Shown piece after piece: positions 1 to 41,831 of a DNA stretch of 41,831 nt (positions are counted from its first letter, which is position 1; every line of letters starts with the position of its first letter). The DNA lies in IMG/VR virus record IMGVR_UViG_3300023094_000005, positions 1-41,831 of that record; one strand, given 5' to 3'. The notes below the pieces were generated by a model. The model ran no database searches and was not told the DNA's origin. It worked only from the letters and a program-made list of their open reading frames with translations. Both the position numbers and the translations under genes were made by a program. The stretch is from a virus.

Positions 1-127
1 TCCTTGATGTCATGCGCAAGAGTGCGCAGGGCGGCTTACTGATGGAAAAGTCAGCCGTTGAGGACATCAACCAGTTTGAACAGTCTTACACCGGCAATGG
101 TACGACGTGGGTTGAAGACGGCGCGCT
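1..127. repeat. Terminal direct repeat, left copy
   Basis: These 127 bases are identical to the last 127 bases of the window (41705-41831). The portal reading frame continues through the join without a break. An exact odd-length overlap is what a de Bruijn assembler leaves when it closes a circular graph, so this is more likely an assembly overlap than a true phage terminal repeat. One copy should be dropped, giving a 41,704-bp circular map. Confidence 0.93.
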
Positions 128-7934: not shown

Positions 7935-8878
7935 TGGGCCTTTCATCGAAAACCCAAAAGACAAGCTCCACCACCACACCGACCAACCCCGGCTGGGTGT
8001 CTAGCTCTCTACAGGGCTATAACAGCGGCGTGGACGCTCTGGCTAAGACCGATCCGTCTCAGTACGTCACAGGGCCGTCTAGCCTCCAGCAGCAGGCCTT
8101 TACGGGGGCCTCTAACCTGGGCGGCAACTACACGGGGCTCTTGTCGAGCGCTAAGGGGCTCTTGGACGCTAATTCAAATGCCTATGGCAACCCCTACACG
8201 CAACAGGTCATTGACTCGTCACTGAACACCTATGATCAACAGGCGGGCATGACCAAGGCGTCAAACGCGGCGGCGGCGGCTAAGAATGGGGCCTTTGGTG
8301 GCTCTCGCTATGGCATCCAGCAGGCCCAAACAGATGCAAACCTAGCCAATGGACGTGGAGCCCTGCAATCCGGACTTCTGTCGGATGCTTATGACAAGTC
8401 CGTGGCTAATAACCTCGCCACGGCGGGCGCATATAGTGGTCTCGCGGGTCAAACAAGCGCGCTGGACATTAACAAGGTCAACACGCAGGCTAATCTAGGT
8501 GGCCAGCAGCGTGACATTGCGCAGCAACAGGCAACCGCTCCGCTCACCCTACAGCAGGTTCTTGGCCAATTGTACGGCCAGGGTCAATACGGCCTGTTCC
8601 AAGGCAATACGCAAACCGGCAAAGCATCTCAAGACCCGTCAACCATGGATCAGATCGGCACGGCCATTCAAACGGCTGGCAATCTGGCCACGCTGTTTTC
8701 AGATCGGCGCTTGAAAGAAAACATCGAGTACATCGGGACACACAAGGGCCGCAAGTGGTATAATTACAACTACCTGTGGTCACCTGAAAAGCACACTGGC
8801 GTCATGGCTGATGAAAACCCTGACATTGCTATTGAGGGGCCAAATGGCTTCAAAATGATTAACTACGGCATGGTGTGA
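7934..8878 (+). CDS. Virion protein with a short chaperone-of-endosialidase-like C-terminus
   Basis: A 314-residue protein whose first 240 residues are low in charge and rich in Ala, Gln, Gly, Asn and Ser, as in phage proteins ejected with the DNA. The last 65 residues begin with SDRRLKENIEYIG and continue with WYNYNYLW and HTGVMADE. These are hallmarks of the intramolecular chaperone (peptidase S74) family found at the ends of tail spikes. The domain is short and appears to lack the usual self-cleavage section, so it may be a remnant or a minimal form common in internal virion proteins. It is coupled to both neighbours. Confidence 0.7.
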   Translation: MGLSSKTQKTSSTTTPTNPGWVSSSLQGYNSGVDALAKTDPSQYVTGPSSLQQQAFTGASNLGGNYTGLLSSAKGLLDANSNAYGNPYTQQVIDSSLNTYDQQAGMTKASNAAAAAKNGAFGGSRYGIQQAQTDANLANGRGALQSGLLSDAYDKSVANNLATAGAYSGLAGQTSALDINKVNTQANLGGQQRDIAQQQATAPLTLQQVLGQLYGQGQYGLFQGNTQTGKASQDPSTMDQIGTAIQTAGNLATLFSDRRLKENIEYIGTHKGRKWYNYNYLWSPEKHTGVMADENPDIAIEGPNGFKMINYGMV

Positions 8879-11013
8879 TGGGCCTTTTTAGCAGCATATT
8901 TAAAGGGCCCCCTATAAGCTCCACTATGTACGGAGCGCCAAGGGGGTTGCGCCGTGACGGAACGGTTGACCTTTACAATAGGCCGCAAGTGGTAAATGAG
9001 GACGGCTCTGTCAGTACGGTGCGCAGCTTGTCATTTGGAACTGATGAGGGTGAGGTGCTTGTCCCTACGGTGTCTGATGACGGGCGCATTATGAGTGACG
9101 ATGAGGCTATGGCGCTATATGGTAAAACGGGACGCTCACTAGGCGTATTCGATACGCCGGAAAATGCCACAGCCTACGCAGAAGACTTGCACAATCAACA
9201 AGACCGCCTTTACGGCGCGGGAGCTAAAGAAATGGCTAAGGGCCTTTTTACATCGCCTACATTTGATCAATATAGCCAAACGCAACAGCTTCCGCAAATG
9301 CCGGTCACACCACAGCCCAAAGGCTTGCTTGCCTCGCTGTCTGGTCTTTTGGCCAAGGCTGATAATCCGAATGACCAAGGCCTGACGTTCTGGGACCGCC
9401 TAGGCACGGTAGGCGCTGGCTTGCGTGATGATTCCGGCATCGCTCAATTGCAGGCACAACAGAACACGGCAAAGACCGAGGGTTACCGCAAGAATAAGCT
9501 GCGTGAGGACGCTCTAACCAAGGCCAATGCTGATGCTGACGCTTTGGGCCTGACCGGACGTGAACGCCTTGTGTTCATGGCGAATCCGGAGAAGTGGGCA
9601 GAGGAGAACGCCAAGCGCTACGCTCCAGCAACCCTGGGGGCTGGTGATGCACGCATCATTCCCGGCGAAGACCCGATGTACAACGCCCGTACCTTCACGG
9701 CTGGCGATCAAATCTTTAACACGACTATGGGCGGCGCTCCTGCGCAAGTTGGCTCCGTGGCCCCTACGTTTGCCGATGAGACGGCCCGCATGAACGCCAC
9801 TAAGCCGGATTATCAGGCGGTAAACCCTGAATACAACGTCCTGCAAACAAACCCCTATGCTGGTGTGGGTGGCGGGATCGGCGGCGGCACTGCACCACAA
9901 CAACAAGGTTACGCGCCACAAGAGGGCGTTCGCTCAGATCGCAATAACAATGCTGGCAATCTGCGTTGGGACGGCAAGTCGCAATGGCAGGGCATGAAGG
10001 GTGTGGACCCGCAAGGTTTCGTCATCTTTGATTCGCCTGAAAATGGTGTGCGGGCGGCTGGCATTAACTTGGCCAATCAACAGAAGTTGCACGGCCTGAA
10101 TACCCTGTCGGATGTCATTGCAAAGTATGCCCCACAAGCCGACAATAACAATACGCAGGCCTATATCCAATCGGTTGCTCAGCAAACGGGCATTGATCCT
10201 AACCAGCCCATCAATCTGAGTGACCCCGCTATTCAGGCCAAGGTGCTGCCTGCCATGTTCAAGGTGGAGGGGGGCGGCACGCCTGCGCGTATCCCTACGC
10301 CTCCGCAGCAAGATCAGGGCTTTGCACCTCAAATCATTCAGCAGGGCAGGCCTAAAGACACAAGTGAGGTTCAGCTTAAGGCGGATCGCCAAGGGCAAAT
10401 GCAGCTCCGCAAGGAATTTGACGGCCTTCCAGATGTCAAGAATTACAATACGGTTGCGGGCCAGTATCAAAACATTCGCAAGTTTGCGGCTGATAACTCA
10501 GGCTCAAATGATATCGGCTTGATTTTCAGCTACATGAAAATGCTTGATCCTACGTCCGTTGTTCGTGAAGGCGAGTATGCAACCGCTCAAAAAACGGGTG
10601 GGATTCCCGCGTCGGTGGTCAATCAGTACAACAAGGCGCTTAACGGTCAATTCCTGACGCCCGCTCAGCGCCAATCTTACGTCAAGACGGCTAAATCTGT
10701 GCATGACAATGCCCGTCAGCGCTATGACGAGGTGCTTGGACAATATCGCGATTACGGCGCTCAGTCTGGCTATGACCCCAACTTCATTCAGTCGCGTGCG
10801 GCTCCAAAAGAAGACGAGCAGCGCGCCGCTAACGGCGGCTTGGCGGGCGCAACGGATGCGCAACACAAGCGGTATGCCAAAATCTTCAAGAGCGGCACAG
10901 CCTACGGAAGCGCAACAAACCCCTACTTGGTCAGAAGTCAGGGGGAATATGACGCCCTGAAAAATGGCCAGTGGTTCATTGATGATGACGGCGCTCTAGC
11001 TCAAAAGAAGTAG
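8878..11013 (+). CDS. Large internal virion protein with a muramidase-like segment
   Basis: A 711-residue protein, taking the ATG at 8878 that overlaps the previous stop (TGATG). Residues about 8-105 match a module common in podovirus virion proteins: NRPQVVNEDGSVSTVRS, then EVLVPTVSDDGRIMS, GKTGRSLGVFDTPENATAYA. Residues about 355-450 contain RNNNAGNLRW, a FVIFDSPENGVRAA block and IAKYAPQADNNN, resembling the RNNNPGN-type domain of virion-associated lytic enzymes. It probably travels with the DNA and opens peptidoglycan at entry. The catalytic assignment is inferred from the motif only. Confidence 0.68.
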   Translation: MGLFSSIFKGPPISSTMYGAPRGLRRDGTVDLYNRPQVVNEDGSVSTVRSLSFGTDEGEVLVPTVSDDGRIMSDDEAMALYGKTGRSLGVFDTPENATAYAEDLHNQQDRLYGAGAKEMAKGLFTSPTFDQYSQTQQLPQMPVTPQPKGLLASLSGLLAKADNPNDQGLTFWDRLGTVGAGLRDDSGIAQLQAQQNTAKTEGYRKNKLREDALTKANADADALGLTGRERLVFMANPEKWAEENAKRYAPATLGAGDARIIPGEDPMYNARTFTAGDQIFNTTMGGAPAQVGSVAPTFADETARMNATKPDYQAVNPEYNVLQTNPYAGVGGGIGGGTAPQQQGYAPQEGVRSDRNNNAGNLRWDGKSQWQGMKGVDPQGFVIFDSPENGVRAAGINLANQQKLHGLNTLSDVIAKYAPQADNNNTQAYIQSVAQQTGIDPNQPINLSDPAIQAKVLPAMFKVEGGGTPARIPTPPQQDQGFAPQIIQQGRPKDTSEVQLKADRQGQMQLRKEFDGLPDVKNYNTVAGQYQNIRKFAADNSGSNDIGLIFSYMKMLDPTSVVREGEYATAQKTGGIPASVVNQYNKALNGQFLTPAQRQSYVKTAKSVHDNARQRYDEVLGQYRDYGAQSGYDPNFIQSRAAPKEDEQRAANGGLAGATDAQHKRYAKIFKSGTAYGSATNPYLVRSQGEYDALKNGQWFIDDDGALAQKK

Positions 11014-23858: not shown

Positions 23859-24446
23859 CTACAGCGCGCGGATCATTGAATAAACGAAGGCGGTGTAAAC
23901 GGACTCGTCAAATTCTTCCGCATAACCATACTCGTCAACCTTGCCAGCCACACAACCGGCCTCAATAAGCGGCTTGGCAAGGTCATAATCCCAACCCGAA
24001 TTGCCAAATGGGCGCTTACCGCTAAACCCCTCAGTTTCACGGAAAAGGGTTTCCAGCAATTCCTTGAGGTAGTCGCGGATAGTCAAGTCGCGGTCCAGAT
24101 CGCCGCAATGAAATTTCAGGTCAAGTGCCTCCAAAGGTGTCATGCGACAGGGCTCCAAGCCATAGCCCTCTTGGGCCGCCTTTAAGTCGTGCTCGGAAAG
24201 CATGTAGCCGCAAGAGGCATATGACTTATTCCAGCCACGGCAATACAGCCATGGCTTTTGACGGCGCTTGGCTTCGGCATACAGGAGGTCCGTTTGCCAG
24301 TGAGCGGGCGCGCGAGGGTTGTTCGCGGCAAAGGCTGATAGCCAGCACTTACGCTCCGTTTCATCGACCAAATCAGTGTCAGAAAGTTCAGCGGCATGAA
24401 CTGCGTATGCTTCCTTTTCCGCATCGACTTCAAGTTTCGTCTTCAT
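23859..24446 (-). CDS. Hypothetical early protein, full-length member of an intragenomic pair
   Basis: A 195-residue protein using the ATG at 24446 with AAAGGA upstream. Residues about 1-100 are specific to this copy (including a Cys/Trp-rich stretch RKPWLYCRGWNKSYASCGYM-like). Residues about 103-195, from MTPLEALDLKFHCGD to the end, are nearly the same as the plus-strand gene at 36492-36776. No named family is recognised. The shared part begins exactly at an internal Met-Thr-Pro-Leu, which is also the start of the short paralogue. Confidence 0.7.
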   Translation of the reverse strand: MKTKLEVDAEKEAYAVHAAELSDTDLVDETERKCWLSAFAANNPRAPAHWQTDLLYAEAKRRQKPWLYCRGWNKSYASCGYMLSEHDLKAAQEGYGLEPCRMTPLEALDLKFHCGDLDRDLTIRDYLKELLETLFRETEGFSGKRPFGNSGWDYDLAKPLIEAGCVAGKVDEYGYAEEFDESVYTAFVYSMIRAL

Positions 24447-24480
24447 TGTTTTATCCTTTGCTGATTGATAGGTAGGAAGG

Positions 24481-24717
24481 CTAAGAGGCTCGGCAAAGGT
24501 ATCCAGTGCCGTCGATTTCATAGCCATCTTCGTCGTAATCGGGAGTCTCGTATAAAACGCCATAAGACTTTAGAAGCGCCTCAAGCTGCTCAGCCAAAGC
24601 CTTTGGCACCATGATAAACTCACGGCCATCTGTCATTTTCAGGCTTGTGTCGCTGTCGCAAACGATATTAACCGACACGTCAATCAACTTGCTTTCAAGC
24701 TCCAAGGGCGCGGCCAT
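24481..24717 (-). CDS. Small acidic hypothetical protein
   Basis: A 78-residue protein. The ATG at 24717 forms TAATG with the regulator gene and is preferred to an upstream in-frame start. The C-terminus is very acidic (ETPDYDEDGYEIDGTGYL). Unknown function. Confidence 0.62.
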   Translation of the reverse strand: MAAPLELESKLIDVSVNIVCDSDTSLKMTDGREFIMVPKALAEQLEALLKSYGVLYETPDYDEDGYEIDGTGYLCRAS

Positions 24718-28792: not shown

Positions 28793-29148
28793 TGGGCCGG
28801 ATTTTATCACAAAAGGTACGCAACGCCATCTCCCTCGTAAAGGGCGGAGAGCCTGTTGCGCGTGCGGCACAAGCCACAGGCTGTACACCAAATGCTATTT
28901 ATGAGTTTTTCAAACGTGCTGGAACGCCTATTGGTCGCCCTGAAAAAGGAGCGCGCAGGGCGATCTCAAAGCCCAGAAAGGCCGCTAAAGGCCACCGCGA
29001 TACGGCTCGCGTACAAATTGCTGTACGATTGAGTGAGGCTAACTTCAATATTGTTTCTGGTCTGGCCTTCAAAAAGCAAGTCCCCCTGTCTCGCTACATT
29101 GACAATGCGATCTGCGTTTATCTCAAGGCCATTGGTGAGCTAAAATGA
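28792..29148 (+). CDS. HTH plus ribbon-helix-helix-like DNA-binding protein
   Basis: A 118-residue protein. The N-terminal part has a resolvase-type HTH (ARAAQATGCTPNAIYEFFKRAGTPIGRP). The C-terminal part (VQIAVRLSEANFNIVSGLAFKKQVPLSRYIDNAICVYL) follows the ribbon-helix-helix pattern, with the beta strand 'VQIAVRLS'. Two DNA-binding units in one small protein would make it a transcriptional regulator of the phage or host. Confidence 0.66.
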   Translation: MGRILSQKVRNAISLVKGGEPVARAAQATGCTPNAIYEFFKRAGTPIGRPEKGARRAISKPRKAAKGHRDTARVQIAVRLSEANFNIVSGLAFKKQVPLSRYIDNAICVYLKAIGELK

Positions 29149-29855
29149 AGCGCACAAGCCCGTTTAAATGGACCGAGGCCATCACAAAGCAATGCGTTGA
29201 TGATTGGAACGCTGGCGAGAGCGCAACTACTCTGGGCCTCAAGTTCGGCATATCTCGTAACGCTGTTGTGGGCCGTATGAACCGCCTGAAAGATAAGGGC
29301 TGGGACATCCGAGACGGTAATGCTCCTCCCAAGCCTGTAACGGTCGGTGTAAGTTCTTACGGCAAACTGCCAGACCCAACCGAACAATGGTCACACGAGC
29401 AGACCGAAAGCGTCATCACCATGTGGCGCGCTGGCAAAAGCATCTTGGAAATCAAGACCGCAACTGACCGCACTATGGGAAGTGTCCGAGGCAAGATCGA
29501 TCTACTATCTCGCAGGGGCTTGATTGTCCGCGACGGCTCAAGGCGTGCGGAAGCCATTGCCAGACCCAAGAAAACCAAGCTCCAGGAATCCTACGGCGTC
29601 AAAGCGATATCGTTCAATGAGCTACGTCAGGAGGATAGAGTGGAAGCCTACACAGTTCAGGGTCACAAGACCGTCGCTGCCTTTGAGGCGGCTATGCCGA
29701 ACACTGGTGTTCCATTGATGGAAATTCGGGCTTACCAGTGCAGGTTTCCAACCTCAAATGGTCCGTTGTGGCTGATGTGTGCCGAACCGGTTGAGGGCAA
29801 GTCAAGTTACTGTCCAAAATGTGCCGAGCGCGTTTATGGAAGGATTGCGGCATGA
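29145..29855 (+). CDS. GcrA-like cell-cycle regulator with two N-terminal HTH units
   Basis: A 236-residue protein. Residues 8-50 (FKWTEAITKQCVDDWNAG... ISRNAVVGRMNRLKDKG) match the GcrA DNA-binding segment, which ends in SRNAVxGKxxRL. Residues 80-125 are a second related unit (EQWSHEQTESVITMWRAGKS... TMGSVRGKIDLLSRRG). The C-terminal 40 residues have QCRFPT..GPLWLMC and YCPKCAERVY, close to GcrA's 'CRWPIG...FC...YC..H...AY' block. GcrA in alphaproteobacteria works with sigma-70 at CcrM-methylated GANTC sites. A phage copy could redirect host cell-cycle promoters. Confidence 0.8.
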   Translation: MKRTSPFKWTEAITKQCVDDWNAGESATTLGLKFGISRNAVVGRMNRLKDKGWDIRDGNAPPKPVTVGVSSYGKLPDPTEQWSHEQTESVITMWRAGKSILEIKTATDRTMGSVRGKIDLLSRRGLIVRDGSRRAEAIARPKKTKLQESYGVKAISFNELRQEDRVEAYTVQGHKTVAAFEAAMPNTGVPLMEIRAYQCRFPTSNGPLWLMCAEPVEGKSSYCPKCAERVYGRIAA

Positions 29856-30674: not shown

Positions 30675-30717
30675 CGCCCGCCACGCCTCTTAACAATGCG
30701 CAACAGGCGGGTTTTTT
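30675..30717 (+). terminator. Terminator after the rusA-like gene
   Basis: CCCGCC (30677-30682) can pair with GGCGGG (30706-30711), and an inner CGCCT/AGGCG stem is an alternative, followed by six T residues (30712-30717). The stretch from 30571 to 30674 has no gene that I can support; it carries one leader-like sequence on the minus strand (30620-30640). Confidence 0.65.
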
Positions 30718-30771: not shown

Positions 30772-30882
30772 GTCTGGCGGGACTTGATTGCGCGTCGGTT
30801 TTGTGTGAAGGTAGGCGGCGGGAGAGCTTTGTGGAAATCGCTCAATCCCGCCCATTTACGGCACGAAAGGAATAATGCCGCT

Positions 30883-33571: not shown

Positions 33572-33765
33572 TGAGTTTGCACGTATTCTTAATCGGGCTT
33601 GCATGTTTCATTGGTTGGTTCGTGTGGCTTCCGGCCATGTTTGAGTGTAGCGGAAGCGGGTCTTGGAATTACCATGGGGAAGTGACGTGGGCCAAGGTCA
33701 GCGGATGGGCGACCTTTCTTTGCTTTTTCGGTGGCCTGATTTTGTATTTCGTCGCGCACGCTTGA
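33571..33765 (+). CDS. Small two-span membrane protein
   Basis: A 64-residue protein (ATG 33571) with hydrophobic segments at about 3-22 and 43-62. It is the last gene before a strong terminator. Unknown function; possibly an early membrane protein with a role in exclusion. Confidence 0.63.
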   Translation: MSLHVFLIGLACFIGWFVWLPAMFECSGSGSWNYHGEVTWAKVSGWATFLCFFGGLILYFVAHA

Positions 33766-33832
33766 CACCCTATAAAAACAAATACACACTACCCCTGCCA
33801 ATTCCCCTCGTTGGCGTGTAAGCGTATCAAAG

Positions 33833-33862
33833 CCCGTCACTCTCCCCGGTGATGGGTTTTTT
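33833..33862 (+). terminator. Rho-independent terminator of the replication operon
   Basis: An 8-bp stem (CCCGTCAC 33833-33840 with GTGATGGG 33849-33856, one G-T pair), an 8-base loop and six T residues (33857-33862). Confidence 0.88.
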
Positions 33863-33863
33863 C

Positions 33864-33892
33864 TTGCCTGTGGCGTGATTTTGGGGTAAAGT
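33864..33892 (+). promoter_or_regulatory. Promoter directly after the terminator
   Basis: TTGCCT (33864-33869) and TAAAGT (33887-33892) with a 17-base spacer. Each box matches four of six consensus bases. The predicted start site at about 33899-33901 coincides with the first base of the long stem of the structured region. Confidence 0.5.
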
Positions 33893-33898
33893 TTCCGT

Positions 33899-34048
33899 GT
33901 TGAGAACTTGGCCGGTAAGAACGGATCGGGACACGTAGGAAACTACGGGGTGGTAAAGCGCGGACGGTACGTGCGGGTTCTCACATCAGTTTCGCCAGCA
34001 ATGGCGTCCGGCAAGATGCAGATCGCGGTTCGATTCCGCGTGAATGCG
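33899..34048 (+). ncRNA. Putative structured non-coding RNA
   Basis: No credible gene lies between 33863 and 34158. This part contains a 7-bp closing stem (TGAGAAC 33901-33907 with GTTCTCA 33977-33983) around a 5-bp GAAA tetraloop hairpin (33934-33947). It is followed by a perfect 5-bp GCAA tetraloop hairpin (33993-34006) and a 5-bp stem with the loop TTCGATT (34024-34040), the form of a tRNA T-arm. The fold of 33901-33983 is cloverleaf-like. It does not complete a tRNA, because acceptor strands do not pair. The 3' end is unknown; from 34049 to 34158 there is a palindrome GGTGGCCACC (34079-34088) and a D-arm-like hairpin (34127-34141). Confidence 0.45.
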
Positions 34049-34158
34049 GAAATAAGCAAACATAATAAAACGCTCACTGGTGGCCACCTTGCGCGGAATA
34101 AAAGTAGGCTGAAATCCGAGCTAATAGCTTAGTGGAAAAGCGGCATCGCTCCCAACAC

Positions 34159-34178
34159 AAAAAAGAACCGCGCCGGTT
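34159..34178 (-). terminator. Rho-independent terminator of leftward operon 2
   Basis: On the minus strand a hairpin AACCG-GCG-CGGTT (34178-34166) is followed by C and six T residues (34164-34159). It ends transcription coming from 35901 to 34219. Confidence 0.82.
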
Positions 34179-34218
34179 AAAGCGCAGTCCCTAAAGCTTC
34201 TCAAAACAATCGGCAAGA

Positions 34219-34407
34219 TTAAGCGTTCAACAAACTAAGCCATAACCATACCAGTCCAAACACCCCTAGACAGGCCATAGAGAGGGCTACAGTGCCAAAA
34301 GGCGTGAGCCGCACACATCCCTTCGTAACCGAGAATCCGGCTTCTCTACCGCTTGCTGAGCTTGATTGACGATGGTATCTGGTAAGCCAATGGGTGTCGT
34401 TGTTCAT
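34219..34407 (-). CDS. Small single-span membrane protein
   Basis: A 62-residue protein with a basic N-terminal half and one C-terminal hydrophobic segment (about 38-60). It overlaps the upstream gene by ATGA. Last gene of leftward operon 2. Confidence 0.62.
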   Translation of the reverse strand: MNNDTHWLTRYHRQSSSASGREAGFSVTKGCVRLTPFGTVALSMACLGVFGLVWLWLSLLNA

Positions 34408-36322: not shown

Positions 36323-36514
36323 ATGAGTGGCATAAGGAGATTGCCCCCAGGGGGCCGCATGGTGTCTTTGCCTGAATTGAGTTCTATAATTCGAGCAAAT
36401 CAAGATTGCGACATAGTTATTTCTATGGAAAGCGGGAAGCCACTTTTTACTTTTATAGGTCGTGGCCATAACCCACATAAGGAGAGAGAAGGTGACACCT
36501 TTAGGGGCGCTTGA
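36323..36514 (+). CDS. Small hypothetical protein
   Basis: A 63-residue protein whose end overlaps the next start by 23 bases. The middle (DIVISMESGKPLFTFIGRG) is a plausible beta hairpin. The ribosome site is poor, so the call is tentative. Confidence 0.45.
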   Translation: MSGIRRLPPGGRMVSLPELSSIIRANQDCDIVISMESGKPLFTFIGRGHNPHKEREGDTFRGA

Positions 36515-36776
36515 CTTAAAATTCCACTGCGGCGATCTGGACCGCGATTTGACCATCCGTGACTATCTCAAGGAATTGCTGGAAACTCTTTTCCGAGAAA
36601 CTGAGGGCTTTAGCGGTAAACGTCCTTTTGGCAATTCCGGTTGGGATTACGATCTCGCCAAGCCCCTCATTGAGGTTGGCTGCATAGCCGGAAGGATTGA
36701 TGAGTACGGGTATGCGGAAGAATTTGACGAGGCCGTTTACACCGCCTTCGTTTATTCAATGATCCGCGCCCTGTAA
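36492..36776 (+). CDS. Short paralogue of the 23859-24446 protein
   Basis: A 94-residue protein beginning with GTG at 36492, behind AAGGAG. It is nearly the same as the C-terminal 93 residues of the minus-strand protein at 23859-24446 (differences are scattered, such as VGCIAGRI for AGCVAGKV), with many silent base changes. The start falls at the same Met-Thr-Pro-Leu that lies inside the long copy. The two copies are in opposite directions. Confidence 0.75.
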   Translation: MTPLGALDLKFHCGDLDRDLTIRDYLKELLETLFRETEGFSGKRPFGNSGWDYDLAKPLIEVGCIAGRIDEYGYAEEFDEAVYTAFVYSMIRAL

Positions 36777-40684: not shown

Positions 40685-41831
40685 TGGAAAACGAAACCCC
40701 CGGCACCTATGATGACGAGCTAGAGCGTAAGTTCAAGGATTGGAACAAGGCCATTGATAGCCATTTTGGCCCATGGCTGAGTGAGGCTAAGGAGTGCTTT
40801 GACCTGACCGCTGGCGAACAGTGGACACAAGAAGAGCGCTCACAAATGCAGGAGATTGAGAAAATCCCTGTGACGTTTGACCGTATCGGCGTGATGGTGG
40901 ATGCTGTCTCAGGTTATGAAATCCAGACGCGGCAAGAGGTGGCGTATCTGCCTCGGACTGTGGACGATTCGGCTGTTGATGATATCCTCACCGCTGCGGC
41001 TAAGTGGGTCATGGACGGTTGCGATGGGGAGAGCGAAGAGTCCGACGCCTTCCGAGATATGATTATCTGCGGCGTGGGCTGTACTCAGACCATCGTTGAT
41101 GTGGACGAAGACAGCCATATCCTGATTGAGCGCCGCAATCCTATGGCTGTGCTGCCTGATCCCTCGGCACGTAAGGGTAACTATGCAGATCGACGTTATC
41201 AACGCCATCGCATGTCCATGTCGCGTGATGCTGCGGAGGACTTCCTTGCCAAGCTTGAGATCAATGACGAGGACGTTGATGGGTTGGAGGATGATGGTGG
41301 CAACTTCAAGCGTGCAACCATCGTAGACCCTCGTGTGCGCTATACCCACGGCATGTTAGGCCCAAATGACGACAATGAGGTGATCCTTGACGAGTGGGAA
41401 TGGTTTGAGCGTGAAAAGACTTACATGGTCAGCGTTGAAGGCGAGGCTAAACTTGTCGGTGATGATGAGTTTGGCGAGTTATTCGCTGCAAACCATGGCC
41501 TGGATCATGTTAGCACGCATACTAAGAAATATTATCGCGCCATTTGTGCGGGCAATCGTATCCTGAAAGTTATCCCGCTCAAAATGGACTCGTTTAGCTA
41601 TCGGTTCATGACCGGCAAGCGCGACCACAACAAGCGGACCTATTACGGCATTGTGCGGGCGATGAAAGACCCGCAACGGTGGGCTAACAAGCTGTACAGC
41701 CAAATCCTTGATGTCATGCGCAAGAGTGCGCAGGGCGGCTTACTGATGGAAAAGTCAGCCGTTGAGGACATCAACCAGTTTGAACAGTCTTACACCGGCA
41801 ATGGTACGACGTGGGTTGAAGACGGCGCGCT
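40684..41831 (+). CDS. Portal protein, N-terminal part (continues at base 3 of the window)
   Basis: The first 382 residues of the portal gene. The N-terminus (ERKFKDWNKAIDSHFGPWLSEAKECFDLTAGEQWTQEER) and IPVTFDRIGVMVDAVSGYEIQTRQEV match P22-type portals, where this segment is followed by a wing and stem region. The frame runs off the end and goes on in the same frame at the start of the window, giving about 665 residues in all. Confidence 0.87.
   Translation, partial: MENETPGTYDDELERKFKDWNKAIDSHFGPWLSEAKECFDLTAGEQWTQEERSQMQEIEKIPVTFDRIGVMVDAVSGYEIQTRQEVAYLPRTVDDSAVDDILTAAAKWVMDGCDGESEESDAFRDMIICGVGCTQTIVDVDEDSHILIERRNPMAVLPDPSARKGNYADRRYQRHRMSMSRDAAEDFLAKLEINDEDVDGLEDDGGNFKRATIVDPRVRYTHGMLGPNDDNEVILDEWEWFEREKTYMVSVEGEAKLVGDDEFGELFAANHGLDHVSTHTKKYYRAICAGNRILKVIPLKMDSFSYRFMTGKRDHNKRTYYGIVRAMKDPQRWANKLYSQILDVMRKSAQGGLLMEKSAVEDINQFEQSYTGNGTTWVEDGA
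41705..41831. repeat. Terminal direct repeat, right copy
   Basis: Identical to bases 1-127. See the left copy. Confidence 0.93.

What the first reader, a model, noticed from the sequence alone, without database searches (positions are those of the whole stretch)
33864..34158. Isolated structured RNA locus with its own promoter, between converging terminators
About 300 bases have no credible gene but have a promoter whose start site falls on the first base of a 7-bp stem. Two perfect hairpins with GNRA tetraloops and a T-arm-like stem-loop (TTCGATT) follow. A D-arm-like hairpin lies at 34127-34141, and GCATC (34143-34147) next to it can pair with GATGC (34015-34019) beside the T-arm. The parts look like a tRNA in the wrong order, but acceptor strands do not pair. 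It could be an unknown phage small RNA that uses tRNA-like ends for processing or protein binding, or an origin or pac element.
Basis: partly seen in the sequence, partly recalled or inferred. Interest (0 to 1): 0.65.

Follow-up and report, generated by a model that had tools for sequence, protein, structure and literature searches.

The report
Scrambled tRNA-like element in a phage
Between two converging gene blocks of a small phage lie genuine tRNA arms in the swapped order known from bacterial Y RNAs, but with no acceptor stem and no known relative, so it is either an unusual tRNA-mimicking RNA or the remains of tRNA genes.

Summary
In an essentially complete 41.8-kb phage genome, a T-arm (34024-34040) and a D-arm (34125-34141) lie in a gene-poor stretch between converging terminators. 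They score like arms of true phage tRNAs (20.4 and about 23-24 bits). With the GATGC/GCATC pairing the module scores 51.4 bits; the best of 700 shuffled genomes reached 26.9. Order and register match the circularly permuted tRNA domain of bacterial Y RNA (YrlA). It is not filed as a YrlA: no acceptor stem, Ro-type stem, TROVE gene or YrlA-model hit, and no homologue was found. The promoter is no better than 262 other sites in the window, overall RNA stability is average, and nearest-neighbour folding disfavours the D-arm and anticodon-like stem. Relatives with the same terminase carry tRNAs or odd tRNA-like RNAs upstream of it, and one carries a permuted module with intact acceptor and CCA. 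Best reading: a tRNA-derived phage element in Y-RNA order without an acceptor, possibly an elbow-mimicking RNA. The strong rival is a relic of broken tRNA genes. New variant of a known kind; function unproven.

The parts
33833..33862 (+). Terminator-like hairpin with T-run ending the upstream + strand block
   Evidence: Sequence; also aligned as the last hairpin of the weak ar14 match
33864..33892 (+).
   Evidence: 8/12 match; 263 sites at least as good in the window
33897..33902 (+). 5' strand of a possible outer stem, GTGTTG, pairs with 34153-34158
   Evidence: Pairing probability 0.98 in 33897-34158 but 0.52 in 33892-34165
33934..33947 (+). Perfect 5-bp hairpin with GAAA tetraloop
   Evidence: probability 0.98-0.99
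33993..34006 (+). Perfect 5-bp hairpin with GCAA tetraloop
   Evidence: probability 0.86-0.88
34015..34019 (+). Anticodon-stem-like 3' strand GATGC, followed by a 4-nt variable segment AGAT
   Evidence: 5/5 pairing with 34143-34147 in exact register, +8.0 bits
34024..34040 (+). T-arm CGCGG-TTCGATT-CCGCG
   Evidence: 20.4 bits, real phage tRNAs 21.8 sd 4.1
34041..34124 (+). Segment where the acceptor stem should be; its end heptamers TGAATGC and GAGCTAA do not pair
   Evidence: 4 of 7 pairs, -14.6 bits
34125..34141 (+). U8-A9 plus D-arm GCTT-AGTGGAA-AAGC
   Evidence: 22.9 to 23.9 bits, real phage tRNAs 17.6 sd 6.9
34143..34147 (+). Anticodon-stem-like 5' strand GCATC
34153..34158 (+). 3' strand of the possible outer stem, CAACAC
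34163..34192 (-). Terminator of the - strand block

Best explanation
A phage element derived from a tRNA-like domain in circularly permuted (Y-RNA, YrlA) order, read from the + strand. The anticodon-like 3' strand and T-arm come first, then an 84-nt segment in place of the acceptor stem, then U8-A9, the D-arm and the anticodon-like 5' strand. Shown: the T and D arms and their register are tRNA-grade and not chance. Inferred: when transcribed, the T and D loops dock (U8-A14, G18-U55, G19-C56 and U54-A58 are all present) into a tRNA elbow, inside an RNA of roughly 260 nt with two GNRA hairpins, which acts as a tRNA mimic for elbow-reading proteins (TruB or DusA, or PNPase as for YrlA) but can be neither charged nor used in translation. 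The confidence is for the structural claim (a tRNA-derived module in permuted order rather than two broken genes); the functional step is about 0.25.
For: T+D score 43.3 bits versus a maximum of 29.8 in 500 shuffled genomes; whole module 51.4 versus a maximum of 26.9 in 700. Both arms as good as in real tRNAs. Anticodon-like 5/5 pairing in exact register. Same layout as the YrlA model and the YrlA crystal structure (PMC11472068). Intact permuted modules exist in phages, one of them in a phage with a related terminase. Two GNRA hairpins close together.
Against: No acceptor pairing, no CCA, no Ro-type stem, no YrlA model hit, no TROVE gene. Energy folding gives the D-arm and the anticodon-like stem about 0.01 in the full RNA, and a weak T-arm, unlike intact permuted modules. 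No homologue, so no covariation. No credible promoter, and no + strand terminator was found close downstream.
Confidence: 0.47

Rival explanations
1. Relic of ordinary tRNA genes: the 3' half of one phage tRNA gene and the 5' half of a following one survive after deletion or recombination, with no present function. The anticodon-like pairing across them is then coincidence or reflects two similar tandem tRNAs.
For: Relatives often have a tRNA gene upstream of the terminase and several degenerate tRNA-like genes there. Acceptor strands do not pair, and the fold is poor.
Against: Both arms are pristine while everything around them is lost. The 5/5 register-exact pairing has about a 1-2% chance (estimated from pair frequencies). 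There is no U33 after the 5' strand and no CCA after the 3' half. One relative has an intact permuted module.
Confidence: 0.33
2. A shorter tRNA- or tmRNA-like RNA in normal order, 33892-34052: TTTCCGTGTT pairs with AATGCGGAAA as an acceptor-like helix next to the T-arm, with the GNRA hairpins as inner arms. The D-arm is incidental.
For: Best fold of 33890-34054; acceptor-like helix 0.83 and T-arm 0.89. Relatives have mini-tmRNA-like RNAs 1 kb upstream of the terminase.
Against: Two unpaired bases separate the T-arm from the helix; no CCA; stability only z -1.1. A 10-pair run in some register has roughly a 3% chance (estimated). Leaves the 23-bit D-arm unexplained.
Confidence: 0.09
3. A coding gene: the 74-codon ORF 33908-34132 (TTG start), with the tRNA likeness by chance.
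For: Open frame across most of the region; codon score like other small ORFs nearby.
Against: No match among 50,697 phages or in solved structures; negative codon score; would require the T/D arms to be coincidence.
Confidence: 0.04
4. A replication origin, pac/cos or attachment site.
For: Non-coding, between converging blocks, 4.1 kb upstream of the terminase.
Against: No iterons or notable repeats. The GC-skew change follows coding strand. No tyrosine integrase in the genome (serine recombinases were not searched).
Confidence: 0.05

Closest known systems
YrlA bacterial Y RNA (Rfam RF02553; Salmonella YrlA, PDB 6CU1)
   Same: Order and register: anticodon-like 3' strand, 4-nt variable, T-arm, (acceptor), U8-A9, D-arm, anticodon-like 5' strand
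   Different: No acceptor hairpin, no recognisable Ro-binding stem, about 84 nt between T and D arms, no model hit, no TROVE gene in the phage
Permuted tRNA-like modules in phage contigs (L015; L209, from the contig of L120)
   Same: T-arm before D-arm at comparable arm scores
   Different: Those have fully paired acceptors; CCA follows the acceptor in L209 and in one L015 unit
Phage tRNA genes and degenerate tRNA-likes upstream of the terminase in relatives
   Same: T- and D-arm sequences, general genome region
   Different: Here the arms are in swapped order without acceptor or anticodon loop
Permuted (two-piece) tmRNA
   Same: T-arm encoded before the 5' part
   Different: The D-arm is of tRNA type; ARAGORN and Rfam find no tmRNA; no tag reading frame was recognised
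GOLLD / ROOL phage RNAs
   Same: Phage-borne and tRNA-associated; GOLLD can carry tRNAs in its linker (PMC12286853), and one GOLLD here (L187) carries a YrlA-like module
   Different: Too short, no sequence or model match

Membership tests
YrlA Y RNA | tRNA-like T and D arms in permuted order and register | tested here: met
YrlA Y RNA | Acceptor-like hairpin between T and D arms | tested here: not met
   4 of 7 pairs, -14.6 bits
YrlA Y RNA | Long basal stem with Ro-binding sequence | tested here: not met
   Only a 6-bp outer stem; no match to the model's flanks
YrlA Y RNA | Rfam RF02553 match | tested here: not met
   No match even at E 10 or E 5
YrlA Y RNA | Ro60/Rsr (TROVE) partner | tested here: inconclusive
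   Absent from the phage; the host is unknown
tRNA gene | Cloverleaf with acceptor stem and anticodon loop | tested here: not met
   ARAGORN none at default; Rfam tRNA none
tmRNA | tmRNA model match and tag frame | tested here: not met
   only the T-arm matches cyano_tmRNA, E 0.46
GOLLD | Rfam RF02032 match | tested here: not met
Any expressed small RNA | A + strand transcript from this locus | not testable with these tools
   no transcriptome available

The most novel reading that the evidence does not exclude
A phage makes an acceptor-less, circularly permuted tRNA-elbow RNA: a Y-RNA-like mimic reduced to the T/D elbow and anticodon-like stem, used to bind elbow-reading host proteins during infection.
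Probability: 0.25. Interest if true: 0.65.

Novelty: new variant of a known kind. Interest (0 to 1): 0.42.

Why it matters
If the RNA is made and folds, it would show that the tRNA elbow alone, without an acceptor stem, is a module that phages deploy, and it would add an acceptor-less member to the Y-RNA-like tRNA mimics. Even if it is a relic, the comparison shows that this phage lineage repeatedly carries odd tRNA-like RNAs (permuted modules, mini-tmRNA-like RNAs), several of them upstream of the terminase, a pattern that can be tested.

Tried and rejected
Exact T-arm and D-arm patterns in 2.9 million viral contigs: only one tRNA-Lys and two apparently coding matches for the T-arm, none for the D-arm. 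blastn of the locus in phages, plasmids and about 790 Rhizobiales-type genomes: nothing credible; one 31-nt match lies in an unrelated host gene and is judged chance. Neighbour-protein searches (helicase, p125, two - strand genes) for syntenic copies: distant relatives only; L102 has no gap at the corresponding place and L128's equivalent region shows no T-arm. ARAGORN at a loose threshold: 300-400 spurious calls, uninformative. Minus-strand RNA: more stable than shuffles (z -2.4), but the T and D arms and GNRA loops read only on the + strand. Permuted hits in tRNA-rich contigs can come from tandem tRNA arrays, so they were not used as support unless the acceptors paired and ARAGORN saw no ordinary tRNA. 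Coding ORF, tmRNA, GOLLD and att site were considered and rejected; the att argument rests only on the absence of a tyrosine integrase and of a tRNA 3' end with CCA.

Full report
SETTING. The window is an essentially complete phage genome: its first and last 127 bases are identical. It carries a terminase large subunit and a major head protein, a RepA-like helicase, and a GcrA-like regulator. Its terminase is closest to those of phages or prophages in Rhizobiales (Aquamicrobium, Kaistia, Aureimonas). The finding lies between a + strand block ending at 33765 and a - strand block ending at 34219. Terminator hairpins border it at 33833-33862 (+) and 34192-34163 (-).

OBSERVATION. The two GNRA hairpins are perfect 5-bp hairpins; two within 70 nt arose in 1 of 200 shuffled genomes. 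The T-arm and D-arm were scored with matrices trained on 51 phage tRNAs taken from other contigs. The T-arm scores 20.4 bits (real tRNAs: mean 21.8, sd 4.1). The D-arm scores 22.9 to 23.9 bits depending on the loop-length term (real: mean 17.6, sd 6.9). T plus D in any order within about 200 nt gives 43.3 bits, against at most 29.8 in 500 shuffled genomes. With the GATGC/GCATC pairing in exact register the module gives 51.4 bits, against at most 26.9 in 700 shuffled genomes. In the related phage DNA searched, apart from loci with tRNA arrays or the intact permuted modules, the best score was below 19. A stricter pattern count gave zero permuted hits in 150 shuffled genomes. The tRNA resemblance is therefore real.

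WHAT FAILS. The strands in acceptor position do not pair (4 of 7; -14.6 bits). There is no CCA, and no U follows the anticodon-like 5' strand at the place of U33. The promoter matches 8 of 12 positions, and 263 sites in the window are at least as good. The + strand is not more stable than shuffles. Full-length ensembles give the D-arm and the GATGC/GCATC stem about 0.01 and the T-arm 0.32-0.44. Intact permuted modules in other phages give a T-arm of 0.8 to 1.0, though the D-arm can be low in true tRNAs too (below 0.05 in 14% of them).

WHAT THE ORDER MEANS. T-arm before D-arm, with an anticodon-like stem opening into the rest of the RNA, is the plan of the bacterial Y RNA YrlA. Its Rfam model lists the parts in this order, and its crystal structure superposes on tRNA with a circular permutation (PMC11472068). 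YrlA tethers PNPase to Ro60 and is modified by DusA and TruB (PMC8394870). The window element keeps the residues for the elbow contacts (U8-A14, G18-U55, G19-C56, U54-A58, G53-C61). It lacks YrlA's acceptor stem, Ro-binding stem and model match, and the phage lacks TROVE and RtcB genes. It is therefore not filed as a YrlA; it is organised like one.

RELATIVES. No homologue of the element was found, so covariation could not be tested. Phages with related terminases often carry a tRNA upstream of the terminase (Arg in L104, L111 and L136; Thr in L107; Met in L116; Gln in L145, L158 and L172), or odd tRNA-like RNAs. L122-L125 have a 110-nt RNA matching the tmRNA model at E 2e-10 (below the gathering score), with a G3-U70 acceptor and ACCA but only the tRNA-like ends. 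L120's phage has a permuted module with a 7/7 acceptor and GCCA (YrlA E 7e-7, below the gathering score), although its anticodon strands do not pair. Permuted and truncated tRNA-like elements are thus part of this phage group's repertoire.

EXPLANATION. The best-supported reading is a tRNA-derived element in YrlA order without an acceptor stem. Shown: arm identity, order, register, location. Inferred: transcription, elbow formation, and use as a tRNA mimic. The main rival is that these are halves of two former tRNA genes. It explains the missing acceptor and the poor fold. It leaves unexplained the intact arms and the exact 5/5 pairing, which would be a 1-2% coincidence by my estimate. A shorter normal-order tRNA/tmRNA-like RNA (33892-34052) folds better (acceptor-like helix 0.83, T-arm 0.89) but leaves the D-arm unexplained.

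VERDICT. Structure claim: more likely than any single rival, about even odds. Function: open. New variant of a known kind, moderate interest, because the case rests on one orphan sequence.

Noticed in passing
window 30677-30712 (+): abiF RNA (Rfam RF03085, 51.9 bits, above gathering) between the RusA-like resolvase gene and the gene at 30784.
   Followed up: no
window 33762-33862 (+): A consensus -35 (TTGACA) lies before two hairpins with C-rich loops, the second followed by a T-run; weak match to the alphaproteobacterial ar14 sRNA (18.4 bits, E 0.37, below gathering). Possibly a phage sRNA with anti-Shine-Dalgarno-type loops.
   Followed up: no
L015 2760-3130 (IMGVR_UViG_3300031555_003626, 233-kb contig; L082 identical over 3.9 kb): Three tandem permuted tRNA-like modules with paired acceptors (one followed by ACCA), matching YrlA at E 3e-9, 4e-6 and 9e-4 (below gathering), with repeated flanks GAGCCAATGCTTATTTCTT and TTAGCTTGGCC; ARAGORN finds no ordinary tRNA there, and the contig has no TROVE or RtcB hit.
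   Followed up: partly
L187 1448-1961 (same contig as L015): A GOLLD RNA (E 1e-42) whose variable linker holds a permuted tRNA-like module with paired acceptors; YrlA matches inside the GOLLD.
   Followed up: no
L209 1501-1581 (-), contig of L120 33409-33489: Permuted tRNA-like module with 7/7 acceptor and GCCA in a phage with a related terminase, next to a tRNA-Thr and near another mini-tmRNA-like sequence.
   Followed up: partly
L124 3764-3873; same in L122, L123, L125: A 110-nt tmRNA-like RNA (tmRNA model E 2e-10) about 1 kb upstream of the terminase: GGGGCTG...CGGCTCC-ACCA with a G3-U70 pair but no room for a tag frame, preceded in L123 by a consensus-like promoter.
   Followed up: partly
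L136 around 9085-9320 and L178 around 8430-8550: A tRNA or tRNA-like gene followed by a non-coding stretch closed by GCGAGGCGGC / CCGCCGCCTCGC, upstream of the terminase in both phages; possible shared structured RNA.
   Followed up: no
L116 8400-8530: After a tRNA-Met, a tRNA-like RNA with an 11-position closing stem, a T-arm and a long variable region; not recognised by ARAGORN or Rfam.
   Followed up: no
window 23859-24563 (-) and 36462-36776 (+): Two ORFs share a nearly identical stretch of about 90 residues (ALDLKFHCGDLDRDLTIRDYLKELLETLFRETEGFSGKRPFGNSGWDYDLAKPLIE...), an internal gene duplication in opposite orientations.
   Followed up: no
window 29145-29852 (+): Phage-encoded GcrA-like cell-cycle regulator (Pfam E 5e-16).
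   Followed up: no
window 1-127 and 41705-41831: Identical 127-bp ends: the contig is an essentially complete, circularly assembled genome although classed as linear.
   Followed up: yes
L175 1624-1721: Below-gathering matches to amino-acid leader families (Leu_leader E 1e-4, Phe_leader E 0.5) upstream of a degenerate tRNA-like sequence.
   Followed up: no
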